From Planctomycetota bacterium (GTDB taxonomy: Bacteria > Planctomycetota > Phycisphaerae > WQYP01): 64,000 nucleotides of DNA. Below are positions 45,753-64,000 of the stretch, one piece after another. The notes beneath the pieces were generated by a model, which was not told the DNA's origin, ran no database searches, and saw only the letters and a list, made by a program, of their open reading frames with translations. Both the position numbers and the translations under genes were made by a program. The stretch is taken from assembly GCA_021819825.1 (NCBI GenBank), contig JAKAEZ010000002.1, positions 1-64,000 on the forward strand, written 5' to 3'. Within the stretch, counting starts at the first letter, position 1, and each line of letters opens with the position of its first letter.

Positions 45753-47864
45753 ATGAAAATCAACGTTATCACCGCGATTGCCGCAGCTGCGACATTCGCC
45801 ACCGGCGTTCACTTTGCCACTGCAACCAATTATAATTTTAACACAACCACCGGAAGTTTGACCGTTACTGGCGGTACGGCAACAGGCGGCACGCTGATTT
45901 CCCAAACTACTTCGCAGGGAGAAGTTTTTTCCTTTGGTGGAAATGTCATATTCAACACGGGTGATACCATCAGCGTCGTCGGTTCACGACCACTGATCAT
46001 CGATTCTTACAATGATCTGACCCTTGGCACGAACGTCACGATTGATGTTTCTGCCAATGGCCGACAGGCGGGGCCTGGCGGCGGCGATGGCGGTTATGGC
46101 AGTTCCGGTGGTTACGGGGGAGCAGGTGGCCTGCCGCCTACGGGGGCCAATGCCAATAACGGCGGTGCCGGCGGTGGTGGTGGCGGTTCTATTCAAGGTG
46201 GAGGCAACGGCGCGCCCGGCGGTGCTGGGGCGGCGTATGCCGGGTCTCCCGGTGCGGCGGGAGCACCTGGGAGTGCCGGTGGAACGGGTGGCATCAGTTT
46301 TGGATCGCCAATTAATGGAACTGCGGGCGGTACCGGCGGTTCAAACTTGGGCCAAGGTGGTGCAGTCGGACTTAGCGGGAACCCCGGATCAGGCGGATCA
46401 GGTGGGGCTTCAAATCTCTACATCTATAGCGGCAGTTATGGCGGCGGCGGCGGCGGCGGCAAGCCTGGCTACGCAGGCATCTTTGGCGCTAATGGTGCGG
46501 CTGGCGTTAATGGCAGCAATATCGCTACACCCAGCGGACTTACCGGCGGTGCCGGCGGTGGCGGAGGTGGCGGTGGTCAAGGCGGCGGCGGCGGCGGAAA
46601 CGGTGGAGTAGGGGGCGGTGCTGGCGGTGGCGGAGGTGGCGGTGGTTCTCTATTTGGCGGCGGCGGCAGCGGCGGAAACGGTGGTGCCGGCGGCCTTGGA
46701 GGTGCCGGCGGCAATGGCGGCAATGGTGGGAGCGGTGGTGACGGTGGAGGCGGAGGCGGTGCTGTTGAGCTCTTTGCCCTCGGTCAGCTTACTGTTAACG
46801 GAATTATCCAAGCAGATGGAGCCGCCGGGCAGAGCGGCACTGCAGGTACCATCGGTGGGACTGGCTCCTCAGGGGGCAAAGGGGTAACCGGTCAGCCGGG
46901 CGGAAATCCCGCTTCGGCCAGCCAATCGGGATATGGCGGTAACGGCGGAACTGGTGGAGACGGTGGCACAGGCGGCAATGGCGGCATTGGCGGAGCTGGC
47001 GGAAAAGGCGGTGCGGGAGCCGGCGGCACCATTGAATTGATAGGGTCAGCGGTTAACGCACAATACGGTTCCTATCTTACAATCGGCGGCACTTTCTTCA
47101 ACGGCAGCGGTAATACCAACGACCTTTCCGAAACCAATGGACGATTTATCGTAGAAACCAACAGCCAGATCACCCCGATTCCCTCGGTCGTTGGCGCGCA
47201 GCCGCTTTACTTTGGTAATGGTCCCGAGGGAGTCAATCCATACATACAGGGGCCTTCCTCCACGCTTACACCCAATATTCCGGATTTGGTCGGGGGCGCA
47301 GCAGCACCTTACGGCGTTCTGGCTAATCTTCAGGCCACCTCGCCGACATTGGCCAACCTTGCGAAAAACGGCCCAGCCAACGCTTTGGCGGCCGTCTTGC
47401 TGGGCAGCAGCGGATTACCCGGCTATTCCGAAGTATACCCAGGGTACCAGTGGGTCTTCGTTGTAAACTTAAAAGCGACGCCCATAGGCGGGCTGCGCGT
47501 TGGCCTGAGTTCAAATTCTTCCACCTTCGCCGCATCGCTGATGCAGCAATCGCTTTCGATAAACAACGGCAGCTTTGCGCTGACAACGAGTACTGATGTC
47601 AATCTGCCCGGAAATGATGTCTACGCTTTTCTGGCACCGACTGCCTTGATTGACACCGGCACGTTTTATGCCACTGCAACTGGGGCGTTCCCTCTGACCC
47701 TGACTTCCGATTACGGACTGGTTACCCCTGGATTCCTGCCGGTTGGTTATCTCCAATCCACTGTTGCTACGCCGGAGCCTGCCCAGTGGACAATTGCGTT
47801 GACCGCGCTGGTCGGCATATCGCTGGTGATTCGCCCGCGACGAAAAAACTTTGCGACCAGATAA
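45753..47864 (+). CDS. Glycine-rich PEP-CTERM surface protein
   Basis: A 703-aa exported protein. A signal peptide (VITAIAAAATFATGVHFATA) is followed by about 80 residues of beta-rich sequence (VIFNTGDTISVVGSRPLIIDSYNDL). Residues about 105-430 are a very glycine-rich low-complexity region, made of GGAGG, GGNGG and GGGGGG tracts. Then comes a beta-rich domain, and the C-terminus ATPEPAQWTIALTALVGISLVIRPRR is a PEP-CTERM signal for exosortase processing. The glycine-rich part could form polyglycine or elastic helices on the surface or in the matrix. ATG at 45753 has GGAG at seven bases. The repeats are also GC-rich DNA and give long false frames on the other strand. Confidence 0.85.
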   Translation: MKINVITAIAAAATFATGVHFATATNYNFNTTTGSLTVTGGTATGGTLISQTTSQGEVFSFGGNVIFNTGDTISVVGSRPLIIDSYNDLTLGTNVTIDVSANGRQAGPGGGDGGYGSSGGYGGAGGLPPTGANANNGGAGGGGGGSIQGGGNGAPGGAGAAYAGSPGAAGAPGSAGGTGGISFGSPINGTAGGTGGSNLGQGGAVGLSGNPGSGGSGGASNLYIYSGSYGGGGGGGKPGYAGIFGANGAAGVNGSNIATPSGLTGGAGGGGGGGGQGGGGGGNGGVGGGAGGGGGGGGSLFGGGGSGGNGGAGGLGGAGGNGGNGGSGGDGGGGGGAVELFALGQLTVNGIIQADGAAGQSGTAGTIGGTGSSGGKGVTGQPGGNPASASQSGYGGNGGTGGDGGTGGNGGIGGAGGKGGAGAGGTIELIGSAVNAQYGSYLTIGGTFFNGSGNTNDLSETNGRFIVETNSQITPIPSVVGAQPLYFGNGPEGVNPYIQGPSSTLTPNIPDLVGGAAAPYGVLANLQATSPTLANLAKNGPANALAAVLLGSSGLPGYSEVYPGYQWVFVVNLKATPIGGLRVGLSSNSSTFAASLMQQSLSINNGSFALTTSTDVNLPGNDVYAFLAPTALIDTGTFYATATGAFPLTLTSDYGLVTPGFLPVGYLQSTVATPEPAQWTIALTALVGISLVIRPRRKNFATR

Positions 47865-50493: not shown

Positions 50494-53400
50494 TCAGTGT
50501 TGGGCCTTTGGTGCCAGGTACCAGTTACGTCGAACCAGTACCGCCAGACGCTCCTGCGGCGTTAATACTCGCGGATCATACGCCAGTCGCAGTCCAACAT
50601 CGGCAAAACCTCGGCTGGTTCGGCGCAGATGCCAGTTGATAGCGGCGGGTACGGCGGGAGAAATTTTGCCCAAGGGAGCCAAGGCGGAGGCACCGATAAC
50701 CAGCATATTTTTTAAATCTGCGGTTGGCAGGAGCTTGTTGATCGCAGCGCTGTTAAAAGTGGTTGGAGTTTTGAACCAGATTTTCAGAGCTTGGCGGTAG
50801 CTTGAGGTATCATTAAAAACGTACACGGCGACATTCCCAGCCAGATCAGTAAAGGTGTCTTGCGCTGCGCCGGAAGTGACCGGTTCAAACCAGAGTACAG
50901 GATTCGTACTGGGACCGTATTGATGCAGAAAGGGAGCCATCGCCGGCACAGCGTAGTTGTATATATCCCAGTATCGGGGAGTCGGCAGGCGAGCATCGCG
51001 CGCGGAGTTGACGTTCTTGAGATACGCCACATACGCCGCCAGTGTTTTGCCGGGCACATGGGCGGTTGGGAAATCTTTCATACCGTACAGCGTAAAGGCC
51101 TCTTGCCATTCACCGGCGGTGGGCAGGCGGCAGCCCAGCAAAGCGGCCACATAAATGGCGGCTTTCGGGGGTAAATATTGGACCGGATCGTTCAAATTCG
51201 GCGGGCCGCCGAAAGCTTTACTCAGGTGCCCCCCCGCCTTTGCCAGCATATTTGCGGGATAACGCGGCGCGTTGTAAATCTGATTGGTATTGGTAAACCA
51301 ATGCTTGGCCAGTTCAGCTTCACCGACGGTCTGATTATAAACCCAGGTATGCGGACCAAAATAATTACTGTTGGGTTTGATGAGATTGTAGAAGGAGTTG
51401 GACGGCTTATGGATAAGGTTATGACTGGAATTCACCGCATCCAGGAATTCTCCCACACTTAAATCCGTGGTGCATAAATAAAATCGTTTAACGCCGTTGG
51501 GATTCATGAGGCGAAATGCCAGTGTATAGTTACCCGATGGACTGGTAAAAACCCTGCCATGGTCAGGCGTTTTGGCCTGCTTCCATCCCGCAAGCGCCGG
51601 CCCGGAGGGTTGTTGTGCCTGATTGGCTTTGGCTTTAATAATGGCCTGAAGTCCCTGGTCAAAGGCTGTAACTTCAGCGGCACTACGCAGAGATTCCATA
51701 GCCGGTTCCGACAACGCCAAAGCCAGTAACTGGTGCATGCCGGTCGCCAGATTCTTGGCCATTTCCGGCGTTTTTACGCCAACGGATTGCCGGGAAAATT
51801 GATACAGCAAAATATTAAAGCGGGCTTGAGCCGTCAGTGTTTGCAGCGCCGCCAGATCATGCAACTGCGGCGTATGCGCCAACGTCAGATGATAATCGGC
51901 GGCGGCGGTAATGGTTTGCGAAACCATCGTCGGCGTAAGAGCCTGATTCATCCGCAGTTGCCATCGGAGGCGGTATTGGCGCTGTAATTGCTCCAGCAGC
52001 GCCCGTTTGCGATCGGGAGTCAGAGCGGGGGCTTCCGGCACAAGCTGATCCAGCCGGGTCGGAATTCGCCGTTCTAAGACCAGCGGTGAATTCCCGGGTG
52101 ACGCCGGAATCGCACCGAGCCGCTGCCAGATAGCCCGAACCAACAATGCCTTATTGGCGGTAGCGGATAACGCCAGGCGGTAATCCGCCGGAAGGGCGAC
52201 AGCCGATGCGGCATGAATTGCGGCAAGCTGCTGCAGTAAGGCGATTTTGAGTTTTAAAGCGGCTTGAATGTTGGCATTGTGCCACCAAGGATTTTTCTGA
52301 ACGGTTGCATAAAGCGTAGAAATTGAAATACCGGGTGACAGAGTATCTTGTGGAAGTCGGCATTGGGTTAATGCGGTATCGATTTTGTTGAAATCAGTAA
52401 GAAGTTGGCGGAACGTCAGACGCTGTTGCACCCAGTTAGCGGCAGGCTTACGGGAAATAATCGGCGACAGTCCCGACCATGTCAGCTTGGCGAACGCGTT
52501 ATTAATGACGGCGGCACGAGCCGGTTCAAGCGCGGTTGAAATTGCCAGCTTATTCCATGGCCGGCTGAATTCCGCTTGAGACTTCGCCAGATCGGTTGAA
52601 AAATCAGCCGCCAATAATGATCGGATATTGGCGCGTATGGTTCCAATACGCTTACTGATATCGGGCACCTGCCACCGCCGCGTACGAAGATTCGTAGTTA
52701 AGAGATTGTAGCTTTGCTGATTGGCCGCAATGGTCGATATCGGTGCCGGGGCCGGCGCAAAAATCACAGCGGTGATTTTCTTCAGATAGGCGGCGTTCAC
52801 CGATGGATAACGGGAAATCCGCAGCACGCGCGGATTGATGCGGTAATGCCGCCCGGGGGGCTGAAAGCCCAGAAATTCGGCGACCCATTTTTTAATATTA
52901 ATTTGAGAATCAATAAATGCGGTAACGGTCTGATTTAACTTTGTCAAATTATTCTGGGCGGTCAGGACGGTATGTTCAATGTCCAGACGGTTTTTCCATA
53001 TCCAAAGATCATGATTACTTACAGCGCGCAATTGCCCACGCAGGGCCTTTAATTCCGCCAGATAATCCACCGTCGGCGGTTTGGGAAGTCGCAAAGCATG
53101 ACCTATGCGCTGCTGAACTTTCCGGGCTTCAACATCAAATTGCACATGGGAGACCAGATAGGCATTTTCCGGACCGGGAAGTTTTCTATATCCGGCCAGA
53201 TCGGGGAAATATTTTTGCGGCGAAAGAGTCTTGCTCCGCGGCGGCAATCGCGCCACTAAATCCCAGCGGATTTGTTTTCCATAAGCGGCCAAGGCCTTCG
53301 ACTGTTGTTGGGCTACACGCAGCAGTGATTCCGCGCGATTTTCCAAATTGGCTGAATTGGAGGATGCCGCCAAATATTGCCGCGCATACGCGGGAAAGGT

Positions 53401-54828
53401 ACTGACCACCGGCTCTTTAACTTTTGCAAACCGTTCTAATAGAGTATCCAACCGCGGCCGGATCACGCTAAGCCGCCGGGCAGCGGATAATTGCGTCATC
53501 CATTGCTCGGCAGATAAGCCGTTAGAGAGCCGGGCAAAACGCCTTAACTTCGGATTTCTGGCCCAGGACGTTTTATAAAGTTTCAGGAACGGCACCAGCG
53601 ATTGATCATTGGGCATGGCGGCGAGAACTTGGCGATCTAAACTCAGGGCCGCCGTGTGCCAACCGCGTTTTTGCCATCGCCCCTGCTGCTGCCGCAATAG
53701 GGGATACAGATTTCCTAAAATACGCTCGGTCCGCATTAGCAGCACAATGGCGTGGCCGAGTTTTTGCGCTTCGTGCGGATGCGCGGAGAGGTCTTTTTGA
53801 ATTTGCTGATTTGATAAAAGCCCCGTGAATTCATGAAGAATATCATCCGGATTAAGAATAATTCCGTGCGATAACGCGGCACTAATGGGGGCAAATTCCG
53901 GCACTTTGGACAGAGCCTTGCGATGGGCGGCAAAGGCTTTAAACCATTGGGTGTAAGCGGCAGAATAGGGTGCGTACGCACCATTAAAACGCGACATCTC
54001 AGCGAGTGTACGGGCATGTCGTAAATAACCCAATGCTGCGATAACCAGCAGAATGATCACAGCGGCAACACTTAAATAAATAGGCTTGCGACTTTTCCGA
54101 GGTTTTAATTTAATGGCTCGGTCCAGAGCAGTGGCAATATTACGCTCCGCCAGATCCTTATTGAGCAGAAACCCGCAAAAATCGCTCCAGGCTTTTCCTT
54201 CTGATCCTAAAGATTTAAATTCGGCCATGGCCGGATCCAGGGGAGTCGTGGGCGTCCAGCGCCTTGCGGCAACAAGTTCACAGATCATGCGCCCGAGTTG
54301 CACGAGATCGTCCGATGCAACCGCATCGGCGTTGAAGACACTGCTTGCCGGATTGGATAACGCGATGCGCGACTGGGCGATCGAACCGCTGGAGGCGTAA
54401 ATATGTTCCGCCCGTAAATTGCCATGTGTGCGGGACGTAAGCTTCTGCGCGTCAAGCAGTGCGGTTAATACCGTGGTTGCCAGGTGATGCAGATCGGCGG
54501 CCGTGGGCTTTACGTGCAGGCGGATCAATCGGCTAATGGGCCAATCGAAGCGTTCCAGCACACAATACGCGCCAGAGTTGTCAATGGCCTGAACATCAAA
54601 GACTTTAGCCCAAAGCGGTGATTGCTGGGCAACTAATTTCTGAAAATCATAACCGGCTATAAATCTCGACTGTGCGGCGCGTTGGCGCGTGGGGTTCCAC
54701 AGATCCTCAGGCGGATGCAAATCCAGGACAACTTTGGCCGGAGATTGGGAATCTTCCAGCGCATAGCATATCCCCAGGGCCTGCCGGCTCAGGATATGAT
54801 CGGTTTGATATTGACCGAAATTAGGCAC
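50494..54828 (-). CDS. Large membrane protein: kinase-like N-terminus, TM segment, FGE-sulfatase domain at C-terminus
   Basis: A 1444-aa protein. Residues 1-245 look like a degenerate Ser/Thr kinase: RTHGNLRAEHIY stands where HRDLKPxN is expected, and DDLVQLGRMICELV where DVYSLGVLLYEL is. The catalytic Asp is absent, so it is probably a pseudokinase. A single membrane helix follows near 253-270 (YLSVAAVIILLVIAALGY). About 850 residues of helical, low-similarity sequence come next. The C-terminal 250 residues form a formylglycine-generating-enzyme/SUMF1 fold: FYLCTTDLSVGEFLDAV, GCRLPTAGEWQEAF, FTDLAGNVAVYVF, RGFADVGLRLAYD. The GTG start at 54828 has a modest ribosome site. It ends the T6SS-like cluster and may signal or bind outside the cell. 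Confidence 0.82.
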   Translation of the reverse strand: MPNFGQYQTDHILSRQALGICYALEDSQSPAKVVLDLHPPEDLWNPTRQRAAQSRFIAGYDFQKLVAQQSPLWAKVFDVQAIDNSGAYCVLERFDWPISRLIRLHVKPTAADLHHLATTVLTALLDAQKLTSRTHGNLRAEHIYASSGSIAQSRIALSNPASSVFNADAVASDDLVQLGRMICELVAARRWTPTTPLDPAMAEFKSLGSEGKAWSDFCGFLLNKDLAERNIATALDRAIKLKPRKSRKPIYLSVAAVIILLVIAALGYLRHARTLAEMSRFNGAYAPYSAAYTQWFKAFAAHRKALSKVPEFAPISAALSHGIILNPDDILHEFTGLLSNQQIQKDLSAHPHEAQKLGHAIVLLMRTERILGNLYPLLRQQQGRWQKRGWHTAALSLDRQVLAAMPNDQSLVPFLKLYKTSWARNPKLRRFARLSNGLSAEQWMTQLSAARRLSVIRPRLDTLLERFAKVKEPVVSTFPAYARQYLAASSNSANLENRAESLLRVAQQQSKALAAYGKQIRWDLVARLPPRSKTLSPQKYFPDLAGYRKLPGPENAYLVSHVQFDVEARKVQQRIGHALRLPKPPTVDYLAELKALRGQLRAVSNHDLWIWKNRLDIEHTVLTAQNNLTKLNQTVTAFIDSQINIKKWVAEFLGFQPPGRHYRINPRVLRISRYPSVNAAYLKKITAVIFAPAPAPISTIAANQQSYNLLTTNLRTRRWQVPDISKRIGTIRANIRSLLAADFSTDLAKSQAEFSRPWNKLAISTALEPARAAVINNAFAKLTWSGLSPIISRKPAANWVQQRLTFRQLLTDFNKIDTALTQCRLPQDTLSPGISISTLYATVQKNPWWHNANIQAALKLKIALLQQLAAIHAASAVALPADYRLALSATANKALLVRAIWQRLGAIPASPGNSPLVLERRIPTRLDQLVPEAPALTPDRKRALLEQLQRQYRLRWQLRMNQALTPTMVSQTITAAADYHLTLAHTPQLHDLAALQTLTAQARFNILLYQFSRQSVGVKTPEMAKNLATGMHQLLALALSEPAMESLRSAAEVTAFDQGLQAIIKAKANQAQQPSGPALAGWKQAKTPDHGRVFTSPSGNYTLAFRLMNPNGVKRFYLCTTDLSVGEFLDAVNSSHNLIHKPSNSFYNLIKPNSNYFGPHTWVYNQTVGEAELAKHWFTNTNQIYNAPRYPANMLAKAGGHLSKAFGGPPNLNDPVQYLPPKAAIYVAALLGCRLPTAGEWQEAFTLYGMKDFPTAHVPGKTLAAYVAYLKNVNSARDARLPTPRYWDIYNYAVPAMAPFLHQYGPSTNPVLWFEPVTSGAAQDTFTDLAGNVAVYVFNDTSSYRQALKIWFKTPTTFNSAAINKLLPTADLKNMLVIGASALAPLGKISPAVPAAINWHLRRTSRGFADVGLRLAYDPRVLTPQERLAVLVRRNWYLAPKAQH

Positions 54829-55003
54829 CCGGCAATTCCATCACGTGTTCGCTGGCGGTTACGACTATACCACGCTTAACAAGCGTACCAAAAACAATCT
54901 CCAGACTTACGATTCAGGCCTGGCTAATACCACCGGCATAGCCGGCGGCTATGTGATGGACTTCAGGTCGAGCTTGGGACGCCGCGAAATATAAGCCGCA
55001 TAC

Positions 55004-55543
55004 TTAGCTCTTTTTCGGCTTAGGAGGCGTCAGGCACACCACGCCGCTGTTTTTAATCAAAATCCTGATCGGATTGGCGGAATCCGGCCAGCGTGATTTT
55101 TGCAACGGCAATATCAGGCGGCGCGGATCTTCCGGGCCTGGCATATCCTGGCGGATTCCCGGCAACTGCGCCAGCACAAATAGATATGTGTCCCCATTTT
55201 TTTTCCACTGCTTCCATATTGGATTGTGTTTGGAGAATACAACTTTGGCGGAAGAACCGGGAGTAAAATTAATCGTCGCTTTGACCGCGCCGGATCGGAG
55301 CAAATCACCAGCAGAAAAATACCGCGTCATGGAATAGTTGTACCATCGCTTATAATCTGTGGCATTAACGCCCACCAGATCAACGGCAATGGTGCTGGTG
55401 GATTGATTATTAACCTGCAAGCTCTGCCCCAGCGTGAACTGCGTGTTGCGGTCAATCGGCCCGCTTGAACACGCGGTTAACCCCAGCAGCAAAAGCAGCA
55501 TGATCATGCCCGCAAGGATTCTGTTGTGCGATTCACATTTCAT
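55004..55543 (-). CDS. Lipoprotein in T6SS-like cluster, possible TssJ analogue
   Basis: A 179-aa lipoprotein: a signal with MIMLLLLLGLTAC is cut before the cysteine in the lipobox LTAC. The mature part is beta-rich (LQVNNQSTSTIAVDLVGVN, AVKATINFTPGSSAKVVF), the layout of transthyretin-like domains. TssJ, the outer-membrane lipoprotein of type VI systems, has this size and general order, but I see no specific TssJ motif. The assignment is thus by cluster context and fold type only. ATG at 55543 follows AAGGA. It lies between the 650-aa unknown and the large pseudokinase/FGE gene. Confidence 0.6.
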   Translation of the reverse strand: MKCESHNRILAGMIMLLLLLGLTACSSGPIDRNTQFTLGQSLQVNNQSTSTIAVDLVGVNATDYKRWYNYSMTRYFSAGDLLRSGAVKATINFTPGSSAKVVFSKHNPIWKQWKKNGDTYLFVLAQLPGIRQDMPGPEDPRRLILPLQKSRWPDSANPIRILIKNSGVVCLTPPKPKKS

Positions 55544-55585
55544 AGTGCGTCCTTTTTTTAACTACCAATTCTGGTAAAAAATCTG

Positions 55586-57535
55586 TTACATTCCCATCTG
55601 AAACCGGCGGATCACCGCGTGAACCTCTCGGTTTACCTGCCAGTCAATTACAATCAAGCTTCGTGTCTGAATCAAGAGCCGGTCCAATTTTTCGGCCACT
55701 GGTTCAAACACATTGGCCATCGCGGCGGACGGTATTGTACCGTATGTGCGGTAAAAGCTATCAGGGCCGACGGCGGGAATCATCTGAACAATTAGCGCCA
55801 GTATGTCCGCCCATAGCCGCAGCGGAATTAATTCGCTGTCCTGCTCTTGAACTCCCGCGGCTTGAAAGACGTTCTGGGGGCCTAAAGATTTATTCCAGCG
55901 ATTATCACGCGAAAGAATATCAATAATACGGCCATCAAGAGGTTTATCCGGCGCATAATCGGCGGCAATCTGCCGCGCCAGGCTGTAAAGTTCATCCACC
56001 GCCACCGGCAGCGGATTGGCCGCATGAACAACCAGCGTTCTTACGGCCAGCACGGCCAGAGAATACAGATCATATGCGGTGTCCATGCGGGCGACGCACT
56101 GCACGCCAACCGGTTGCAACGTAGAGCCCTCCGCGGCTTTGAGGACCGATGCCAATCGCGGATGCATCGGCTGTTGCAGGGATCTGAAGCGATACTCCCC
56201 CACCGCCAACGCGGAATCCTGTTCAACCGAACCCGCCACCAGCACACGTTGATCGTTGACTCCAAAACGCAGGCATACCAGATCTTCCGCGCGTGGCGTA
56301 ATGGCGTCGAGGTTGGTTAATGTCCCTTCCAGATAAATTGAGCTGTCGCTTTCGGTCATAACATTACGGAGACGCAAGGCCGCCTTTTCCGTGATCATCG
56401 GCCGGCTTTCAACGGTCGGCTGATATACGCCCGGTGATAGTTTTGAACCATGGGTGAAAACCTGAACCTGCGCATCGGACACGTCGAGGCGGGCGGCATC
56501 GCCGCAATCACGCAGCCGCACCTGACCGGTCCATAAAAATGGCAGCGCGACAGCCGGATTGGCCAAACTGATTTGAAAACTTGAACACTGCAAATTCAGG
56601 ATAGGACGTTGTAAAGACTTGACCGCGGCCTGCGTCTGACGCACAGCATCAGCCAGGAATTTGAGCTTCAAATGAAGGCTTTCGATGATGCGGCCTCGTT
56701 GGCCATGCCGACCGAGAAATACCGTTCCCGAGGTGGCGATTTCACTGGCATCACGCAGTACTTGAGCGACTTTATCAAAATCGGCGGGAAGCTTCCCGAC
56801 AGGCAGGCCGTCGTATTTTGCCCCGCCCAGCACATCAAGAAAAGCGTCTGCGGACAAGGAATCGAATTTGGAGACCTGCATTAAATAACCGCCGGCGTTC
56901 CAGGCAATTAAGGCGCGTTCGGTAAGAACATCGCGTAAAATTTGTGTATTTTCATTAGCGGGCGCATCTTCCCGCACGGACAGAAATAGTGCCTGCCCAT
57001 CCGCCGATTGGATATGCAAATAGCGGAATAAACTCTTGGAGTATGCGGGCAATTTATGGGCCGCCAGAAGCTGGTCATCACAACACAGCTTCCAGGTTTG
57101 CTGGGAAACGGGGTCAACCAATGCCTGCATGCGGCGGGCGGTGAAATCGAAAAATAATGGTACGGAAGGTTGGCTTTCCCATTGGCCGGTAATGATGGAA
57201 TCTTCGGCCCCACGCCGCGCAGCCTGACAATTACTTTTCCAGCGTTCATCAAGTACCTGATTATTCCAGTGCGTGCGGACGGCTTCGGGGCCATCGCTGG
57301 CAAAATCCTGAGTTTGGATGGCAATTTCAACCCATTGAAGCACTGTGCCGACTTGATCGGTCAGACAACCGAGAAAGCAGCGCGCGTCAAATGTTTCCCG
57401 CACCGGCACAAACCAGCCGGCAACCGGATCAGCCTTAAGGCGAATCACGGCGCAAAGCCGAACCGCCGCCTCCGCCGGGGCAATCAAGGGACAGGCCTGG
57501 AAGCCTGTCGGCATGGATGGTGCGAGTTGGGCCAT
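55586..57535 (-). CDS. Unknown protein of the T6SS-like cluster
   Basis: A 649-aa protein with no signal peptide or membrane segment and no family I recognise. A region near the C-terminus (MDTAYDLYSLAVLAVRTLV, then VAVDELYSLARQIAADY) resembles the alpha-F part of kinase folds, similar to the degenerate kinase in the neighbouring 1444-aa protein, but no other kinase motif is clear. The middle is beta-rich, with SSFQISLANPAVALPFLW and SIYLEGTLTNLDAIT. The ATG at 57535 follows GAGGAG; the TTG at 57565 is unlikely. It may be a cluster-specific structural or adaptor protein; this is inference. Confidence 0.6.
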   Translation of the reverse strand: MAQLAPSMPTGFQACPLIAPAEAAVRLCAVIRLKADPVAGWFVPVRETFDARCFLGCLTDQVGTVLQWVEIAIQTQDFASDGPEAVRTHWNNQVLDERWKSNCQAARRGAEDSIITGQWESQPSVPLFFDFTARRMQALVDPVSQQTWKLCCDDQLLAAHKLPAYSKSLFRYLHIQSADGQALFLSVREDAPANENTQILRDVLTERALIAWNAGGYLMQVSKFDSLSADAFLDVLGGAKYDGLPVGKLPADFDKVAQVLRDASEIATSGTVFLGRHGQRGRIIESLHLKLKFLADAVRQTQAAVKSLQRPILNLQCSSFQISLANPAVALPFLWTGQVRLRDCGDAARLDVSDAQVQVFTHGSKLSPGVYQPTVESRPMITEKAALRLRNVMTESDSSIYLEGTLTNLDAITPRAEDLVCLRFGVNDQRVLVAGSVEQDSALAVGEYRFRSLQQPMHPRLASVLKAAEGSTLQPVGVQCVARMDTAYDLYSLAVLAVRTLVVHAANPLPVAVDELYSLARQIAADYAPDKPLDGRIIDILSRDNRWNKSLGPQNVFQAAGVQEQDSELIPLRLWADILALIVQMIPAVGPDSFYRTYGTIPSAAMANVFEPVAEKLDRLLIQTRSLIVIDWQVNREVHAVIRRFQMGM

Positions 57536-57651
57536 GGTGCCGTAACTCCTCTTACTGGCCGGCAAAATGGCAACACCCCACGGGTGAAGCCGGAATTTAC
57601 ACTCGGGTATTGTCGCCGGGCGCGAAATCCAATCAAGCGCCGGGTCAGAAT

Positions 57652-58056
57652 CTACGACGCAACCAGAACCTTGGCCTGACTGGGAGCAATTTGCGCACCC
57701 GAGGGCATATTGGCGTTGGAACCGTTATGTCCGGTTGTGCTTGTGAGGTAGACTGCGGGTTGGCCCTCAATTTTGACCTTCATGCTTCCTTTTTTGAATG
57801 CGACGGTCTGCATATTGGTTCCGGAGACAACACCGCCGGCGGTTCCCGCTTCGTCGCCCTGCGACTGGGACATCTGCGTATTGAGATTAGCGGCCTCCTT
57901 GCCGTCAAACTTGACCTTGGTGGAGGTTTTTTGCGCTTGGGCTAAATTGCCGATGTTCGGATAGGGAATCGGAACCGGCCCGGCGGGCGACGGCGTTTTA
58001 CAGACGTCGGGCATGCCCATGCACACGCCGCCGCCTTTGCTTGATGCTGGAAACAT
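57652..58056 (-). CDS. DUF4150 PAAR-like tip protein
   Basis: A 134-aa protein of the DUF4150 (PAAR-like) family, which caps VgrG spikes or carries effector domains in type VI secretion. Typical parts are CKTPSPAGPVPIPYPNIGNL, GVVSGTNMQTVAFKKGS, VKIEGQPAVYL and TGHNGSNANMPSGAQ. It consists of the tip domain only, with no C-terminal toxin extension. ATG at 58056 has GGAG at seven bases. It starts 17 bases after DUF3540, its usual partner, so the two are co-transcribed. Confidence 0.9.
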   Translation of the reverse strand: MFPASSKGGGVCMGMPDVCKTPSPAGPVPIPYPNIGNLAQAQKTSTKVKFDGKEAANLNTQMSQSQGDEAGTAGGVVSGTNMQTVAFKKGSMKVKIEGQPAVYLTSTTGHNGSNANMPSGAQIAPSQAKVLVAS

Positions 58057-58073
58057 AGTAACACTCCTGCTAA

Positions 58074-58964
58074 TTAACCCAGATGAATCTGATCGGCTTT
58101 AACCTTGAAATCTTCCTGCGTGTTGATGTACGTGTTCTGACTGCGGCTGTGCCAGGTGGATTTAACGATCGTTCGAAGCCGCCCGGCACAAAGTTGGCAA
58201 AGTTCCTCCACGCCCTGATAGACATTCTTACAGCGGCTGATTAGTGTTTCGGTAATCAGTTCGGCGCGGTGTGAGGTGACTTTGATATTTTCGAGTTCAC
58301 CGGTTAAGGACGACGTTTTTACGGCGGCGCGATCGGCGGCAAGATTAAAATTTTCTGCGGTTACATTGACTTCAGGCGACTTAAGCTTTGCGGAATCAGA
58401 TCGCAGGCGCAGTTGCGACAATACACCCTTAAGCGCATGGATAATGCCGACATCCACGGCCCGACCGGCATGAATGGCAACGGAATCAGCCTCCATGCGG
58501 ATTTGTTTTCCAGCGCGAAACACCATATCACCATCCGGTGCCACCAATTCCAATCCGCCGGCATCGGCGTGGATGCGGGTTTGGTGCGTGCGGGAATTGT
58601 ATTCCAGAATCAAGTTGTTTTCGGGGGAAAATATTCGTACATACGATTGAGCGTTGGCTGTGGATATTTCCGCATAGCCACCGCCGGGAAGATATCTCTT
58701 TTCCACCAGTGCGGAATTCCGTGGGCCGGAAATTATACCAATGGCGTAAAGACTCTGAGAGTCCTGACCGGCGATCAGTACCTGTTGACCGCTTTGCGCA
58801 ACTTGGCCATAGCCCATCGCGGCGGTGGCCCAGAATTCGCGCTCCGCGGGGTCATCGGGAAAGCGGATTTTCAATTTCCCGTCATCGGAGACCATGAGCA
58901 CTTGAGCGGGTGAAAATTGCGCCTTGGCGGTCATCGGATCACGTTCTAATAATTCAGGGTGCAT
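58074..58964 (-). CDS. DUF3540 protein, type VI secretion accessory
   Basis: A 296-aa protein of the DUF3540 family, usually found beside DUF4150 and DUF2169 in type VI clusters. The N-terminal half has an OB-like pattern (AQVLMVSDDGKLKIRFP, QQVLIAGQDSQSLYAIGII), reminiscent of the VgrG base. The middle is a beta-helix-like stretch (IHADAGGLELVAPDGDMVFRAGKQIRM). The end YQGVEELCQLCAGRLRTIVKSTW and FKVKADQIHLG is diagnostic. Start ATG has a strong AAGGAGAA. It may be a small spike-like or adaptor component. Its molecular role is not established. Confidence 0.85.
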   Translation of the reverse strand: MHPELLERDPMTAKAQFSPAQVLMVSDDGKLKIRFPDDPAEREFWATAAMGYGQVAQSGQQVLIAGQDSQSLYAIGIISGPRNSALVEKRYLPGGGYAEISTANAQSYVRIFSPENNLILEYNSRTHQTRIHADAGGLELVAPDGDMVFRAGKQIRMEADSVAIHAGRAVDVGIIHALKGVLSQLRLRSDSAKLKSPEVNVTAENFNLAADRAAVKTSSLTGELENIKVTSHRAELITETLISRCKNVYQGVEELCQLCAGRLRTIVKSTWHSRSQNTYINTQEDFKVKADQIHLG

Positions 58965-58978
58965 AATAATTCTCCTTG

Positions 58979-60976
58979 TTATGTATTTTTTTCGGGTTTG
59001 GGAGGCTGAAAATCTTCAGCGGATGCAAGATCGGCATCGGTGCGTTTTACATTGTCGAGATTTGCGCCAGTCCAAATCGCGCCAATGTCAATGATACGGT
59101 GCAGGTCCGCCTGTTTAAGATCGGCGGCTGAAAAATCAGCATTGTTAAATGTGCCATAATTCAGGACGCAGTAAGTCATGCGGGCTTGCCGCAGAATGGC
59201 GCGCACCGCTTTGGCTCTGGTAAAGTCGGCACGCTCCAATTGCGCAGCGGTTAAATCAGCGGCGTCCAAGGTTGCATCCTCAAAGCGAGCGCATCGCAAA
59301 TTCGCTTTCTGAATCTTGGCCCCGGTGAGATTCGCCCCGGTAAAGTCCGCCAGCTCCGCCGCGGCCTGCGACACATGCGCGCCCTGAAAATTGCTGGATT
59401 TCAAATTAGCGCGGCTGATGTTTACCGATGACAAGCGCGCGTTTTGAAAATTCGCCTTTTCCAGATCAGAATCGGAAAAATCGCAGTCGGTAATGTCCAT
59501 ATTGGCACATTGTATCTGCTTCATGTTGCACTTAAAAAAGCTGGTCCGGCCCAATCGGCTGCCGGTGAAATCCACCGCTTTGAAATCAGTCATTTCAAGG
59601 CGCGTGTTGCGCAAGTCCAGTTTGGCGACTTTGGCACCGGCCATTTCACAGTGCTCAAGCGTGCTATGCGATAAATCAGCACCGGAAAGATCAGCTTGGG
59701 AAAACAGGGTTTCATGCAGTGTGGCGCGGCTGATATTGGCTCCCTTCAGCGATGCCCTGGAAAAATCCGCACCGGTTAACGTGCATCCGGAAAAATTCGC
59801 CCCATCCAACTGACCGCCGGCAAAATCGCAGCCGGTCAGATCCATTCCCGCAAAATCGACCTGTTCAAGGCCGCAGGCGGAAACTCGGCCGTTATCAAGC
59901 TTGGCACCCGAGAAGCGGGCACCACCGAGGCGGCAGTTATCAAATGCGGTGGTGGTAAGATCACAACCCGCAAATGCCGCGCCTGATAAATTGGATTCCT
60001 GAAAGGCGGCACCTTTAAGTTGGGCACCGCTGAAATTGGCCGCGGCAAGATTTGTTTTACTGAATCCACTGGATTCCATCCTGGCACCGGAGAAGTCTGC
60101 GCCGGCAAGTTCCATGGCCGAAAATTGCGTTTTTTGTAAATCATAGCCGACAAAATTTCGTTGCTGAAGTTTGCAGGCTTGAAGCGTGCAACCCGCGATA
60201 TTTTTAGGCAGATGAGATTCCGCAAAATCCACATCAGTCAGCGTGGCACCGGCGAGCGTGGCATGAGCTAATCCTTTTACCGCCTTCATACCACAATTCT
60301 GAAATGTCGATTCACCTAATTGGGCACCGGAAAAGTTGCCGCCGTCCAGGGCGACATGTTCAAATTTGGCTTTGGTCATGACGGCATGAGTAAAATCCGC
60401 CTCTTTCATGCTGCAGATGCCCATGCCAAAGTCCGCGTAAGATAAGCCAATATCATGTAATCCGACGCCCGCCTTCTCCAGATCGGTCATGGATGGATTG
60501 GTTTTCGCCAACTCCAAAATACGCGCCGAGGGCTTAACGGTTCGGGGATCCTTCAGGAGCATAACTTCCGCAGCAGCACTGAATCCGGATAGATTTGCGC
60601 CGCAGAACCTGGCCTGGTCGCTGATGCTATTGGTGAATTTGGCGTCGGTAAAATTGGCACCGGTTAAATTCGCGCCCGTGAGATCACAATTATCAAATTG
60701 CGCATCGGCGAATGTGGCATTTTCCAGATTGGCGGCGGCAAATTTGACATAGCGGAACGTGGCCTGGCGAAAATTAACGCCCTTAAAATCCACCCCGGAT
60801 AAATCCACCCACCAGAGTTGCACACCCGCCAGCGATTCACCGGATTGAAACTTGGCAATCACATCTTCGCGCTTCATCAGCAGCTTGCTGTGATTTTTGA
60901 ACTCTTCAGCAAGGCGTTTAATGTCCAGTTTGGACATATCCAGGTTTTGAAAGTCGATTGTATCAAAGTAACTCAT
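58979..60976 (-). CDS. Pentapeptide-repeat protein
   Basis: A 665-aa protein composed mostly of A(D/N)LxX pentapeptide repeats, such as ANLTGANFTDA and ADLSHSTLEHC. These form a right-handed quadrilateral beta-helix. A short helical N-terminal segment (FDTIDFQNLDMSKLDIKRLAEEFKNHSKLLMK) precedes the repeats. The helix may bind or present a cargo to the DUF4150 tip. The start is taken at ATG 60976; a GTG at 60994 overlaps the upstream stop codon (GTGA) and would add six residues, a sign of translational coupling. Its partner is the DUF2169-pentapeptide gene immediately upstream. Confidence 0.88.
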   Translation of the reverse strand: MSYFDTIDFQNLDMSKLDIKRLAEEFKNHSKLLMKREDVIAKFQSGESLAGVQLWWVDLSGVDFKGVNFRQATFRYVKFAAANLENATFADAQFDNCDLTGANLTGANFTDAKFTNSISDQARFCGANLSGFSAAAEVMLLKDPRTVKPSARILELAKTNPSMTDLEKAGVGLHDIGLSYADFGMGICSMKEADFTHAVMTKAKFEHVALDGGNFSGAQLGESTFQNCGMKAVKGLAHATLAGATLTDVDFAESHLPKNIAGCTLQACKLQQRNFVGYDLQKTQFSAMELAGADFSGARMESSGFSKTNLAAANFSGAQLKGAAFQESNLSGAAFAGCDLTTTAFDNCRLGGARFSGAKLDNGRVSACGLEQVDFAGMDLTGCDFAGGQLDGANFSGCTLTGADFSRASLKGANISRATLHETLFSQADLSGADLSHSTLEHCEMAGAKVAKLDLRNTRLEMTDFKAVDFTGSRLGRTSFFKCNMKQIQCANMDITDCDFSDSDLEKANFQNARLSSVNISRANLKSSNFQGAHVSQAAAELADFTGANLTGAKIQKANLRCARFEDATLDAADLTAAQLERADFTRAKAVRAILRQARMTYCVLNYGTFNNADFSAADLKQADLHRIIDIGAIWTGANLDNVKRTDADLASAEDFQPPKPEKNT

Positions 60977-60990
60977 GGTTCTGCCTATTA

Positions 60991-63588
60991 TCACGCTTCC
61001 GACGTGGAGAGCTTGGTCATTTTAACATTGGTGGCACCATCGGTAATCAGACCCTGAAGTACGGCATTAAGAAATTCAGCGCCATAGGCGTTGGCTCCGC
61101 TTAAATTAGCCATGGTCAGATTGGCCTTTTCAAACGAGGCTTTAAATAAATTTGCCTGCTGCATTATCGCGCCCGTAAGATTGGCCTTATTAAGTCGGGC
61201 GGTTTTTAAGTTGGCGGCCGAGCCATTAGCCCCCTGCAAGCCCGCGGCAGTGAACGTGGCACCGGATAACTGCGCGTAGCGCATATTGGCACCAGCTAAA
61301 TTTGCCGCCGCCCAGATTGACTCGGTTCCGCCGGCTTCATACAAATTCGCCTCCGGGAAATCAGCCTTATCGGCACGCAACTTTGTCACATCAGCCTTGG
61401 CAAAATTGACCTGCTTTCCCGTCGCTTTTTCAAAGGTTGCTTCGGGAAGTGCGGCATTGGAAAAATCAGTTTGATTGACGGTCGCAGCGGCAAAATCAGC
61501 CTGCGGGCATTTGCTTTGCTGAAATTTGGCGCGTGACAGATCAGCCTCGACAAATAATGTCTCCTTTGCCGATACGCCAATAAGCACCGCATCGGTCAGG
61601 GTGGCTTTTTCAAACAGGGCTCCATCCAGCATGGCACCGGTCAGATTCGCTCCAGCCAGGTTGGCTTGAGTAAAGTCCGCTTGTTTCAGGTTCGCATTTT
61701 CCAGTGTTGCACCGGCTAAGGCGGCTTGGCTAAAGTTAGCCTGAGGTCCTTGAACCTCGGACATATTGGTTGATGCCAGATTGGCTCCGGTGAAATTGCA
61801 TCGAGTCAGGATTGACGCCTTGAAGTTACAGTTGGACAAGTTGGCACCGGAGAAGTCCGCAGCGGTAAGATTTAGCCGCGACAGGTCTAACTGTGAGAGA
61901 TTCTCCTTAGCCAGTGATTCGCCCAGCGCCACTTTTTGTTCCACCATCTGGCGGGTCCAGACGGGTGGGGCTTCCGGGGGCTTTTCCGCTTCAGGTTCGG
62001 GAATGCCGGCCTTGGCGCGGGCCTGTTTCATCTGGGCGATCAGCGGGGATAAATCTTCCGGGTTGTGGCCCATTTTTGGGAGCAAGGCCCCCATGAGCGA
62101 GGCCATTTTTGCCAGATTCGGATTGCCGGCCATTTCCTTCGGCGAAAGTCCCTGCGATTCCCAGAATCGAATTTGTTCGGCGTGGGCTTTGGCGCTCATG
62201 GCGGGCAGGTTATCCGGATCCAGTCCCAGCTTGGACATTGCGATTTTGAGCTGATTCTGCAAATCCGCCTCGTGCATGGCCGAGGCTTTGGCCGGGTCGT
62301 CTTCAAGCATTTGATCCAGCATGGCCGCCTGTTTGGCTTGTATTTCCGGCGACACCTTAGCGGGGTCCATGCCGAGATTTTTATACGTCGCCGCAATCTG
62401 AGCTTCCATCTGCTTACGCATTTCCGTTTTCTGCTTTTCTTTGGCGGCCAGTTCTTCGGCGGTTGGTTGAGGTGGTTTGGCTTCCGGTGGCGGCGGTTCT
62501 TCCGCGGATTCTTCCGGTTCTTTCAGTGATTGCAAAAATTTCTGACGACATGCTTCCAGGGAGGCGGGCGTTTCCGCCAGGTTTTCATCCATGATAAATA
62601 CGTCGGCGACATCTTCAAATTCTTCAGATTTTACCGCCGCCACGCCACGCCACAGCAGCACCATCTTCTCCGCTTCCATATCCACCCAGAGGGTGTCGAG
62701 ATTCATCGGCACTTCTTCAAAATTTCCCGCCTGTTTTTCTGTGGCACCGGCGCGGTTGATAAAGCAGCGCACACGAACACCCGGCAGACGCGATTCATAT
62801 TTTGCGTGTTCCGGATGTAGATTTTCAAACAGCAACTTTTCGTCACCGCGCAAAAAGCCGTCCACTTGCATAGAAGGCACCGCGGCATTGAAGTAAGCAT
62901 AATCAAAATCCACGGGGAACCAGGGCCAACGGGTTTTGCGATAATTGCCGCCATAGGATCCGAGCTTACCAGCGCGCGTATGCCATTTGGCGCTTAGCGG
63001 AGCAAAGCCGGCGGGAAAGGGCCGGTCTTTCGGGCTTTGAATTAATTGCGCAGGATTTTCGATATTGGGCAACTGCCAGATTTCCTGCCCCTGTCCGCCA
63101 CGCTGAGCCTCATGGCCTTTCCCGATTGGATTGGCAACAAACGCCGGGCCGCCGTAACTATTTTCATAACGCAACGCCATGGTACGAAAAGGCTGCGGAG
63201 CCGTAGCACTTCGGCTAAGCAACTTTTTTTCCCAGCGGCGATCCCCGGCGACCGTTAATTTACCGGCTCTATCGCCGACTTGAAATACCGCCTGGCATAC
63301 GGGAATGGGTTTACCGCCCGGCGGATGGCAGGTACCAACCAACAGTAAATCGGCTTTCGGTTTGAAATAGGCAAAATCGGATTCATAGCGCGGCGGTCCG
63401 CTTTTTTCCTCGTCATCGGGATAAAATTCATCGCCGGTTGGGAATGGTTGCTTTGGGATAGCCACCGGCGGCTGACCGGGCTTTAAGCTGTATGTGGCTT
63501 TTACAATAAGCGTCATAGAATGGCCGGGAAAGTTGGTTCTTCCCGCCAGCGGAGCGAAGGTCAAGGACGTGCAGTTGGCAACTTTCAT
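60991..63588 (-). CDS. DUF2169 domain fused to a pentapeptide-repeat domain
   Basis: An 865-aa protein. The first 310 residues are DUF2169 (MKVANCTSLTFAPLAGR, HSMTLIVKATYSL, EDFYPDDEE-like segment, LVGTCHPPGG, ENSYGGPAFVANPIGKG), a family that serves as adaptor for type VI effectors, such as Atu3641 for Tde2 in Agrobacterium. Next is an acidic/proline-rich and helical linker (about 345-570). The C-terminal 300 residues are pentapeptide repeats (SQLDLSRLNLTAADFSGANL onwards). ATG at 63588 with GAAGG. It overlaps the next gene by a GTGA. The fusion of adaptor and beta-helix suggests that the pentapeptide part docks onto the PAAR-like tip. Confidence 0.9.
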   Translation of the reverse strand: MKVANCTSLTFAPLAGRTNFPGHSMTLIVKATYSLKPGQPPVAIPKQPFPTGDEFYPDDEEKSGPPRYESDFAYFKPKADLLLVGTCHPPGGKPIPVCQAVFQVGDRAGKLTVAGDRRWEKKLLSRSATAPQPFRTMALRYENSYGGPAFVANPIGKGHEAQRGGQGQEIWQLPNIENPAQLIQSPKDRPFPAGFAPLSAKWHTRAGKLGSYGGNYRKTRWPWFPVDFDYAYFNAAVPSMQVDGFLRGDEKLLFENLHPEHAKYESRLPGVRVRCFINRAGATEKQAGNFEEVPMNLDTLWVDMEAEKMVLLWRGVAAVKSEEFEDVADVFIMDENLAETPASLEACRQKFLQSLKEPEESAEEPPPPEAKPPQPTAEELAAKEKQKTEMRKQMEAQIAATYKNLGMDPAKVSPEIQAKQAAMLDQMLEDDPAKASAMHEADLQNQLKIAMSKLGLDPDNLPAMSAKAHAEQIRFWESQGLSPKEMAGNPNLAKMASLMGALLPKMGHNPEDLSPLIAQMKQARAKAGIPEPEAEKPPEAPPVWTRQMVEQKVALGESLAKENLSQLDLSRLNLTAADFSGANLSNCNFKASILTRCNFTGANLASTNMSEVQGPQANFSQAALAGATLENANLKQADFTQANLAGANLTGAMLDGALFEKATLTDAVLIGVSAKETLFVEADLSRAKFQQSKCPQADFAAATVNQTDFSNAALPEATFEKATGKQVNFAKADVTKLRADKADFPEANLYEAGGTESIWAAANLAGANMRYAQLSGATFTAAGLQGANGSAANLKTARLNKANLTGAIMQQANLFKASFEKANLTMANLSGANAYGAEFLNAVLQGLITDGATNVKMTKLSTSEA

Positions 63589-63666
63589 GCGGGCCTTCAA
63601 ACAAATCAATTTTTAAAAACATCCACGAAGATTACTGTTACAAACCGCGATCCTGAAATTTGGTTG

Positions 63667-64000
63667 CTATGGTTCAACCTGAATGGCGCTTCCATTTATC
63701 GTAACTTTGGCTTTGCCGTTTAGCTTTATAGATTGTGCCTTCAACTCAATGTTCTCTTGGGGTGCCTTGATTGAAACCTTGCCAGTGTCCGCGAGTCCGA
63801 TTAGGTTTTTACCCGTTTTCTGCCGCAGAATGATCGGGCCGCCGTTACTCTCAACTTTGACGGTCCCGGATGTACCTATTTTGACGGAACCCAATGCACT
63901 ATCTCCATGCGCGGAGAGCTCAATCGCCTTCTCAGTCGCCTTCACATACGCACTGTAGACCATGGTGGCCACCAGACCGACCGCCATGGTTGCCAGGCCT
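63667..64000 (-). CDS. VgrG-like C-terminal region (partial, runs off the window)
   Basis: The minus-strand frame is open from the window end to its stop at 63667. It reads GLATMAVGLVATMVYSAYVKATEKAIELSAHGD, then strand-rich repeats: VKIGTSGTVKVESNGGPIIL, VSIKAPQENIELKAQSIKLNGKAKVTINGSAIQV. The last part is the typical VgrG tail that precedes or forms the spike's end. The N-terminal portion is outside. It lies upstream of the DUF2169 gene on the same strand, as a spike gene should. A plain hypothetical protein with a beta-helix tail is the alternative. Confidence 0.55.
   Translation of the reverse strand, partial: GLATMAVGLVATMVYSAYVKATEKAIELSAHGDSALGSVKIGTSGTVKVESNGGPIILRQKTGKNLIGLADTGKVSIKAPQENIELKAQSIKLNGKAKVTINGSAIQVEP

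What the first reader, a model, noticed from the sequence alone, without database searches (positions are those of the whole stretch)
50494..64000. T6SS-type accessory cluster with pseudokinase/FGE protein but no core genes
Eight co-directional genes (VgrG-like tail, DUF2169-pentapeptide, pentapeptide, DUF3540, DUF4150, unknown 649-aa, lipoprotein, 1444-aa kinase-like/FGE) form one unit. DUF2169, DUF3540 and DUF4150 are known type VI secretion partners. The large membrane protein with a degenerate kinase and a sulfatase-modifying-like domain is not a standard type VI part. The cluster could be a variant apparatus or an effector-delivery module of its lineage.
Basis: partly seen in the sequence, partly recalled or inferred. 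Interest (0 to 1): 0.75.

Follow-up and report, generated by a model that had tools for sequence, protein, structure and literature searches.

The report
Type VI secretion with dead kinases
These genes are one end of a bacterial protein-injecting machine, and two of its unexplained genes look like kinase-shaped proteins without working enzyme sites, which suggests that the machine is switched by protein contact rather than by phosphorylation.

Summary
The gene run is real, but "no core genes" is an effect of the window's end: the contig continues with vgrG, tssH, G, F, E, impE, hcp, tssC, B and A. DUF2169-pentapeptide, pentapeptide, DUF3540 and DUF4150 are a Class III Tvp spike-loading set (PMC13373197). 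The lipoprotein is a divergent TssJ by predicted fold. The 1444-aa protein is PpkA-like: kinase fold (profile E 3.7e-22), one membrane helix, TagR-like FGE fold. Here all three catalytic residues are replaced; the HRD aspartate is missing in 31 of 34 homologues. The 649-aa protein is probably a second pseudokinase (fold evidence fair, sequence evidence weak). Among 53 fetched stretches, 649>TssJ adjacency occurs in 36 and TssJ>1444-type in 37, often beside TssK-L-M and a Fha-like protein in which no FHA domain was found. TssK and TssM were not found in this 67.6%-complete assembly, but congeners have them. Best reading: a T6SS whose threonine-phosphorylation switch has become a largely non-catalytic scaffold. 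The anatomy is likely; the mechanism is a hypothesis. New variant of a known kind.

The parts
50494..54828 (-). 1444-aa PpkA-like pseudokinase, membrane helix at about residues 250-269, long periplasmic region, FGE (TagR-like) C-terminus
   Evidence: kinase fold; lost catalytic residues; FGE fold; membrane helix read from the sequence
55004..55543 (-). 179-aa lipoprotein, divergent TssJ
   Evidence: model pLDDT 86.1; Foldseek and VIA-align against the PDB; lipobox read from the alignment
55586..57535 (-). 649-aa protein, probable second pseudokinase with a beta-rich insert
   Evidence: conservation
57652..58056 (-). 134-aa PAAR-like DUF4150 protein with a PIPY motif (spike tip)
   Evidence: Pfam PF13665 3.5e-38; motif read from the translation
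58074..58964 (-). 296-aa DUF3540 protein (TvpC type)
   Evidence: Pfam PF12059 1.8e-22
58979..60994 (-). 671-aa pentapeptide-repeat protein (TvpB type)
   Evidence: Pfam PF00805 5.3e-88
60991..63609 (-). 872-aa DUF2169 plus pentapeptide protein (TvpAB type)
   Evidence: Pfam PF09937 8e-88
63667..64000 (-). C-terminal end of vgrG (tssI); the gene runs to contig position 66234

Best explanation
The region is the downstream end of a T6SS operon of a Phycisphaerae planctomycete. Four genes are a Class III Tvp set that loads a VgrG-PAAR spike. The three odd genes are a TssJ flanked by two kinase-shaped proteins. Supported by computation: the 1444-aa protein is a PpkA-type pseudokinase joined through one membrane helix to a periplasmic TagR-like FGE fold, and the triad is conserved in the class, often beside TssK-L-M and a Fha-like protein in which no FHA domain was found. 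Probable: the 649-aa protein is a second pseudokinase. Inferred: the FGE end senses an envelope signal, as TagR does for PpkA; the dead kinase domain, the second pseudokinase and the Fha-like protein then act as a contact-based scaffold that licenses assembly of TssJLM and the baseplate, in place of the PpkA-Fha threonine-phosphorylation switch. I put the anatomy at about 0.8 and the non-catalytic switch at about 0.4.
For: Core genes on the contig. TssJ fold. Divergent TssJ in 36 of 67 T6SS-bearing genomes, Pfam TssJ in 1 of 67 and not in the same ones. 649 family in 38 of 67, two of them marginal; 34 genomes have both. Adjacency 649>TssJ in 36 and TssJ>1444-type in 37 of 53 stretches. Kinase fold of the 1444 family Prob 99.5, E 3.7e-22; HRD-Asp missing in 31 of 34. 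FGE fold in 26 of 31. Fha-like neighbour: PF20232 in 9 of 27, FHA PF00498 in 0 of 27, hhalign to G188 Fha E 1.3e-5. Purifying selection. Precedents: TagR acts on the periplasmic part of PpkA (PMC6082577, passages), tagR1 is listed as an FGE-sulfatase-domain protein (PMC7253367, passage), PpkA interacts with TssJ, TssM and TssL (PMC12607579, passages).
Against: TssK and TssM were not found in this assembly. VAIK-Lys is kept in 20 and DFG-Asp in 21 of 34 members, and 3 members have Asp at the HRD position, so some may bind nucleotide or be active. A canonical kinase gene lies in the G307 cluster. G383 lacks the 1444-type gene, G095 and G544 lack the 649-type gene. In Acidovorax catalytic mutation weakens PpkA-Fha binding (PMC12607579). 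The 649 kinase call has no Foldseek match at E<=0.001, no Pfam kinase match in 34 members, and hhalign probabilities of only 5.5 and 3.6 percent. The gene at the TagF position is only weakly TagF-like (E 0.088; no family in G299). FHA proteins, other kinases and phosphatases elsewhere in these genomes were not searched for.
Confidence: 0.6

Rival explanations
1. A T6SS with a still catalytic, lineage-specific phosphorylation pathway. The 1444-type proteins are odd but working PpkAs, or a separate kinase acts in trans, and the 649-aa protein is a substrate or adaptor.
For: Lys and DFG-Asp kept in 20 and 21 of 34 members; Asp at the HRD position in 3 of 34. Canonical kinase in the G307 cluster.
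Against: The window's protein and its three congeners in the alignment have L, N and N at the three catalytic positions. The Fha-like neighbour shows no FHA domain in 27 members; PF20232 is found in only 3 of 67 genomes, 2 over cut-off.
Confidence: 0.25
2. A decaying T6SS: the catalytic losses and missing tssK-L-M in this genome mark a machine on its way out.
For: tssK and tssM not found in the held assembly; catalytic residues lost.
Against: All genes are open and under purifying selection: dN/dS 0.13-0.18 for the 1444-aa gene, 0.11-0.15 for the 649-aa gene. Congeners G297, G298 and G299 have TssK-L-M. The losses are shared across the class, not private.
Confidence: 0.08
3. One reading: a stand-alone accessory or effector-delivery module without an apparatus of its own.
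For: Within the 64-kb window no core gene is visible besides the VgrG tail.
Against: Core genes follow at the window's edge on the same strand, and the lipoprotein is TssJ by fold.
Confidence: 0.02

Closest known systems
PpkA-TagR-Fha-PppA-TagF threonine-phosphorylation pathway of T6SS (Pseudomonas H1-T6SS, Serratia)
   Same: Membrane protein with N-terminal kinase fold and a periplasmic part; FGE-fold partner as in TagR; Fha-like gene; place beside tssJ and tssK-L-M
   Different: Kinase and FGE folds in one chain; catalytic residues lost; no FHA domain found in the Fha-like neighbour; a second kinase-shaped protein; TagF position only weakly TagF-like; PppA not searched for
TssW-PpkA-Fha axis of Acidovorax citrulli (PMC12607579, passages)
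   Same: PpkA as a scaffold that interacts with TssJ, TssM and TssL beside its kinase role; ppkA and fha encoded near tssJ
   Different: There PpkA is an active kinase and phosphorylates Fha; TssW has no counterpart identified here
Class III Tvp system of Serratia marcescens (PMC13373197)
   Same: vgrG, DUF2169-pentapeptide, pentapeptide, DUF3540 and small DUF4150/PAAR genes in one run
   Different: No difference seen at the level of gene content; complexes were not modelled here
TssJ/SciN/Lip outer-membrane lipoprotein of T6SS
   Same: Predicted fold (VIA Z 9.6-11.3), lipobox, place in the cluster
   Different: 10-13 percent identity to solved TssJ; not recognised by PF12790

Membership tests
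Type VI secretion system | tssA, B, C, hcp, E, F, G, H and vgrG present | tested here: met
   Pfam and NCBIfam matches on the same contig
Type VI secretion system | PAAR or PAAR-like spike tip | tested here: met
   PF13665 3.5e-38
Type VI secretion system | tssK, tssL and tssM in the same genome | tested here: inconclusive
   TssK and TssM not found in the 67.63 percent complete assembly, TssL not searched there; present in G297, G298 and G299 of the same genus (TssL and TssM of G299 by Pfam)
Type VI secretion system | contact-dependent secretion of Hcp and effectors | not testable with these tools
   needs cultures
TssJ | TssJ fold | tested here: met
   the 9 PDB chains at E<=0.001 come from 5 T6SS entries; titles name TssJ, SciN or Lip in 3 of them, and the chains of 4y7o and 6ixh are TssJ by recall and length
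TssJ | lipoprotein signal | tested here: met
   lipobox cysteine invariant in 10 of 10 aligned members (C25), read by eye
TssJ | recognised by the family model PF12790 (a detection model, not a trait of the protein) | tested here: not met
   no Pfam family at E<=1 for the window protein; 1 of 67 genomes, G188 only
Class III Tvp system | DUF2169 with pentapeptide extension, separate pentapeptide protein, DUF3540, small DUF4150, beside vgrG | tested here: met
Class III Tvp system | two-step pre-complex in which VgrG replaces TvpC | not testable with these tools
   biochemistry of PMC13373197
PpkA kinase | N-terminal kinase fold, membrane helix, periplasmic part | tested here: met
   helix read from the sequence
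PpkA kinase | VAIK-Lys, HRD-Asp and DFG-Asp | tested here: not met
   L, N, N in the window protein
FGE (formylglycine-generating enzyme) | FGE fold | tested here: met
FGE (formylglycine-generating enzyme) | active-site cysteine pair | tested here: not met
   no Cys in the corresponding stretch in the window protein and 24 others of 31 (position of the pair recalled)
Protein kinase fold (649-aa protein) | kinase C-lobe and motifs | tested here: inconclusive
   all 50 VIA rows shown are kinases, Z 11.0-13.1; no Foldseek match at E<=0.001; profile scores only slightly above decoys
Fha (X328 neighbour, seen in relatives, not in the window) | FHA domain | tested here: not met
   PF00498 in 0 of 27, PF20232 in 9 of 27 at E<=0.1; similarity to the C-terminal part of G188 Fha

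The most novel reading that the evidence does not exclude
A T6SS lineage spread through a bacterial class in which the whole threonine-phosphorylation switch has been kept as shapes and largely lost as chemistry: a PpkA-TagR fusion with a dead kinase, a second dead kinase, and a Fha without its phosphothreonine reader, together acting as a contact-driven assembly switch around TssJLM.
Probability: 0.35. Interest if true: 0.75.

Novelty: new variant of a known kind. Interest (0 to 1): 0.55.

Why it matters
T6SS control by PpkA and Fha is mainly studied as phosphorylation. A lineage with that gene set in non-catalytic form would separate the scaffold role from the kinase role in nature and make it directly testable. 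The T6SSs of many Phycisphaerae also carry a TssJ that the standard Pfam model misses, so surveys that rely on it would call them incomplete. The 649-aa family gets a first context and a candidate fold.

Tried and rejected
Rejected: the 649-aa protein as a TssK substitute; relatives carry a normal TssK near it. Rejected: the 1444-aa protein as a TssM substitute; relatives have TssM. The IcmF_C search was a poor test, because the TssM of G145 and G299 match only the N-terminal model PF14331. The search with the TssM of G299 was also empty, with the tool's own caution that an empty answer without a positive genome shows little.

Led nowhere: plasmid searches with the DUF3540 protein and with two 649-type proteins; PDB sequence search with the 649 family and with X328 (nothing below E 0.1); Pfam and NCBIfam on the window's 649-aa and lipoprotein genes (one weak NCBIfam lipoprotein match far below its cut-off); Foldseek on the 649-aa model (best rows E 0.017-0.14, largely Upf1 and flavin-reductase-type entries over 100-140 columns; not claimed). 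The kinase rows come only from the second-look aligner, whose notes warn that Z under about 13 can be a common arrangement in helical models. TssJ searches in the T6SS genomes of families f95, f102, f103 and f105 found nothing with Pfam and only one marginal match with the divergent TssJ (G576, E 1.5e-4); their TssJ is unresolved. The dN/dS row for TssH against G299 was dropped because that stretch was cut at a locus end; dS against G296 and G298 is near saturation.

Not in print, as far as searched: (open-licence library; listings read, and passages only of the papers named) showed no paper on T6SS pseudokinases or on this planctomycete cluster. PMC13373197 names Planctomycetota among phyla with DUF2169, and PMC6461901 mentions T6SS in other Planctomycetes (passage). 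The original TagR paper is not held; what I say of TagR comes from PMC6082577, PMC10482370 and PMC7253367, and its FGE fold otherwise from recall.

Full report
What is there. The window is G000:C60:1-64000 of a 2.49-Mb genome in 72 contigs, 67.63% complete; the contig is 216,935 bases long. Along the contig the last one is a full 855-aa VgrG, followed on the same strand by tssH, tssG, tssF, tssE, impE, hcp, tssC, tssB and tssA, then a 3307-aa protein and a ShlB/FhaC-type transporter. The cluster is a T6SS that the window cut.

The spike genes. DUF2169 with a pentapeptide extension, a separate pentapeptide protein, DUF3540 and a small DUF4150 protein are the set called Class III Tvp in PMC13373197 (abstract, section 12 and passages read). 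There TvpAB, TvpB, TvpC and PAAR form a pre-complex and VgrG later replaces TvpC. DUF2169 as a chaperone of the PIPY/DUF4150 tip is PMC11883445 (abstract and start of the introduction read). This part is already known.

The lipoprotein is a TssJ. Ten homologues were aligned (A6) and the window's protein modelled with mean pLDDT 86.1. The nine PDB chains at E<=0.001 come from five T6SS entries: 3rx9 (SciN), 4a1r (Lip), 3zhn (TssJ1), 6ixh (membrane core complex) and 4y7o (titled TssM C-terminal domain); that the 6ixh and 4y7o chains are TssJ is recalled and fits their length of 123-135 residues. VIA-align gives Z 11.3 (6ixh_F, rmsd 3.2, 126 aligned) to 9.6 for these five entries, against 6.8 for the next, IglE, and about 6 for transthyretins. 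Identity is only 10-13%, and PF12790 does not see it.

The 1444-aa protein. Its N-terminus is a kinase fold: PF00069 in 10 of 34 homologues at E<=0.1 (not in the window's own member), PDB kinases at 1.1e-12 by family profile, and hhalign to ten kinases, nine from plasmids of bacteria and one archaeon-containing set plus the G307 kinase, Prob 99.5, E 3.7e-22. Eight of the ten yardsticks show an HxDxKxxN motif by my pattern; four of the nine fetched ones lie next to annotated T6SS genes: tssA, tssM, tssH and tssH. At the VAIK-Lys, HRD-Asp and DFG-Asp positions the window's protein has L, N and N, as do its three congeners in the alignment. Over 34 members these residues are kept in 20, 3 and 21; the alpha-F Asp is kept in 34 of 34. 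A hydrophobic helix at about 250-269 follows (read from the sequence). The C-terminus is an FGE fold (PF03781 in 26 of 31, best 4.4e-26; PDB SUMF2 6.3e-13 and FGE 2.5e-12). In the window's protein and 24 others of 31 there is no cysteine in the stretch where FGE has its active cysteines (position recalled). tagR1 of P. aeruginosa is listed as an FGE-sulfatase-domain protein (PMC7253367, passage); TagR activates PpkA, probably through its periplasmic part (PMC6082577, passages). The 1444-aa protein thus resembles PpkA and TagR in one chain, with a dead kinase.

The 649-aa protein. Sequence searches give nothing useful. The model is moderate (pLDDT 74.2, pTM 0.59). Foldseek gave no match at E<=0.001. 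The second-look aligner shows protein kinases in all 50 rows, Z 11.0-13.1; the best, ScRIPK and the IRAK3 pseudokinase, align 175 and 174 residues at 3.1 A, model range 225-622 and 225-625. Rows that also span the N-terminal part (16-625) have rmsd near 9-11. The tool warns that such Z can be a common arrangement in helical models. By profile comparison a 19-column stretch (CDLYSLAVLAVRTL in the window) aligns with the alpha-F motif of kinases: score 29.9, Prob 5.5, against at most 27.7 in 100 column-shuffled decoys and 24.7 in 12 unrelated T6SS family profiles. Against the 1444-family kinase profile the catalytic-loop region aligns: score 28.2, Prob 3.6, against at most 22.3 in 60 decoys, but the unrelated FGE profile scored 25.5. 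I take it as a probable second pseudokinase with a beta-rich insert that the G188 homologue lacks.

Conservation. A single-sequence search found the 649 family in 3 of 294 genomes of the phylum, the own one included; a scan of GTDB contigs gave 10 loci, nine from Planctomycetota and one from an Akkermansiaceae. In 347 genomes drawn from the class, 65 have TssC. In these plus G145 and G188 (67): divergent TssJ 36 (G576 marginal), Pfam TssJ 1, 649 family 38 (G540 and G576 marginal), PF20232 3, of which 2 over cut-off. Both 649 and divergent TssJ: 34; 649 only: 4 (G188, G540, G558, G583); TssJ only: 2 (G095, G544); neither: 27. G145 and G188 were added because they had the 649 gene, and genomes of one family are not independent. 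In 53 fetched stretches, chosen because a T6SS or 649 match lay there (L017 and L018 dropped as duplicates), 649>TssJ adjacency occurs in 36, TssJ>1444-type in 37, 1444-type>X328 in 16 and X328>TssK in 26; several stretches are cut by contig ends. Exceptions: G383 has no 1444-type gene between TssJ and X328; G583 ends at the contig end; in L025 no TssJ was recognised; G188 has 649, Fha, Pfam TssJ, TssK, L, M, TagF, TssA, B, C and so on; G558 has 649, a 415-aa protein, a 210-aa lipoprotein-like protein, then TssK-L-M. X328, between the 1444-type gene and TssK, resembles the C-terminal part of Fha (PF20232 in 9 of 27, best 2e-6; hhalign to G188 Fha Prob 80, E 1.3e-5) and shows no FHA domain (PF00498 0 of 27). 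In the window's genus, G299 and G297 have X328-TssK-L-M on another contig and G298 has them divergently beside the triad. This could explain why TssK and TssM are missing from a 67.63%-complete assembly but does not prove it.

Selection. Against three congeners dN/dS is 0.13-0.18 for the 1444-aa gene and 0.14-0.29 for codons 1-250; against four congeners it is 0.11-0.15 for the 649-aa gene and 0-0.08 for tssJ. The genes are maintained.

How it may work. Supported by computation: gene content, folds, order and lost catalytic residues. Inferred: the FGE end senses an envelope cue; the signal passes as a conformational change; the dead kinases and the Fha-like protein gather TssJ, L, M and TssK. 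In known systems Fha phosphorylation overcomes TagF inhibition (PMC6082577, passages), while PpkA also interacts with TssJ, TssM and TssL and forms condensates that recruit T6SS proteins (PMC12607579, passages). Against it: in Acidovorax a catalytic mutation weakens PpkA-Fha binding, a canonical kinase gene lies in the G307 cluster, distant members keep Lys and DFG-Asp, the gene at the TagF position is only weakly TagF-like, and FHA, phosphatase and kinase genes elsewhere were not searched for.

Verdict. A T6SS with a known spike-loading set that carries a version of the PpkA-TagR-Fha control genes with lost catalytic residues, conserved across much of a class and not found in print by my searches. 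New variant of a known kind; interest 0.55.

Noticed in passing
C60:77590-89776 (L003:7590-19776), outside the window: A ShlB/FhaC-type transporter (PF03865 9.8e-11) and a 3307-aa protein without Pfam match at E<=0.01 sit inside the T6SS cluster. Relatives of one or both were recognised beside T6SS genes also in G095, G145, G296, G298, G300, G307, G441, G515 and G580: a two-partner secretion pair that travels with this T6SS?
   Followed up: partly
L041/L042 (G307:C59:19035-31326): Two 1444-type genes in tandem, then a 760-aa protein with a canonical kinase domain (PF00069 4.7e-53) inside the T6SS cluster.
   Followed up: partly
G354, G362, G366, G386 and other genomes of families f95, f103 and f105: Another T6SS kind in the class, often with a second, longer TssC-like frame of about 600 aa; neither Pfam TssJ nor the divergent TssJ was found in them, save one marginal match in G576.
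   Followed up: no
L100:226-4668, L106:1-2805, L107:3-3461: Genes at the TagF position are 935-1481 aa long frames in G550, G460 and G547; the one in L107 has an FGE domain (PF03781 1.4e-6), the other two gave no Pfam family.
   Followed up: partly
window 45753-47864 +: A 703-aa very glycine-rich protein with a PEP-CTERM-like end, read from the translation.
   Followed up: no
L025:329-4731 (Akkermansiaceae contig): A 649-family gene outside Planctomycetota, with an opposite-strand frame that weakly matches the 1444-type profile.
   Followed up: no
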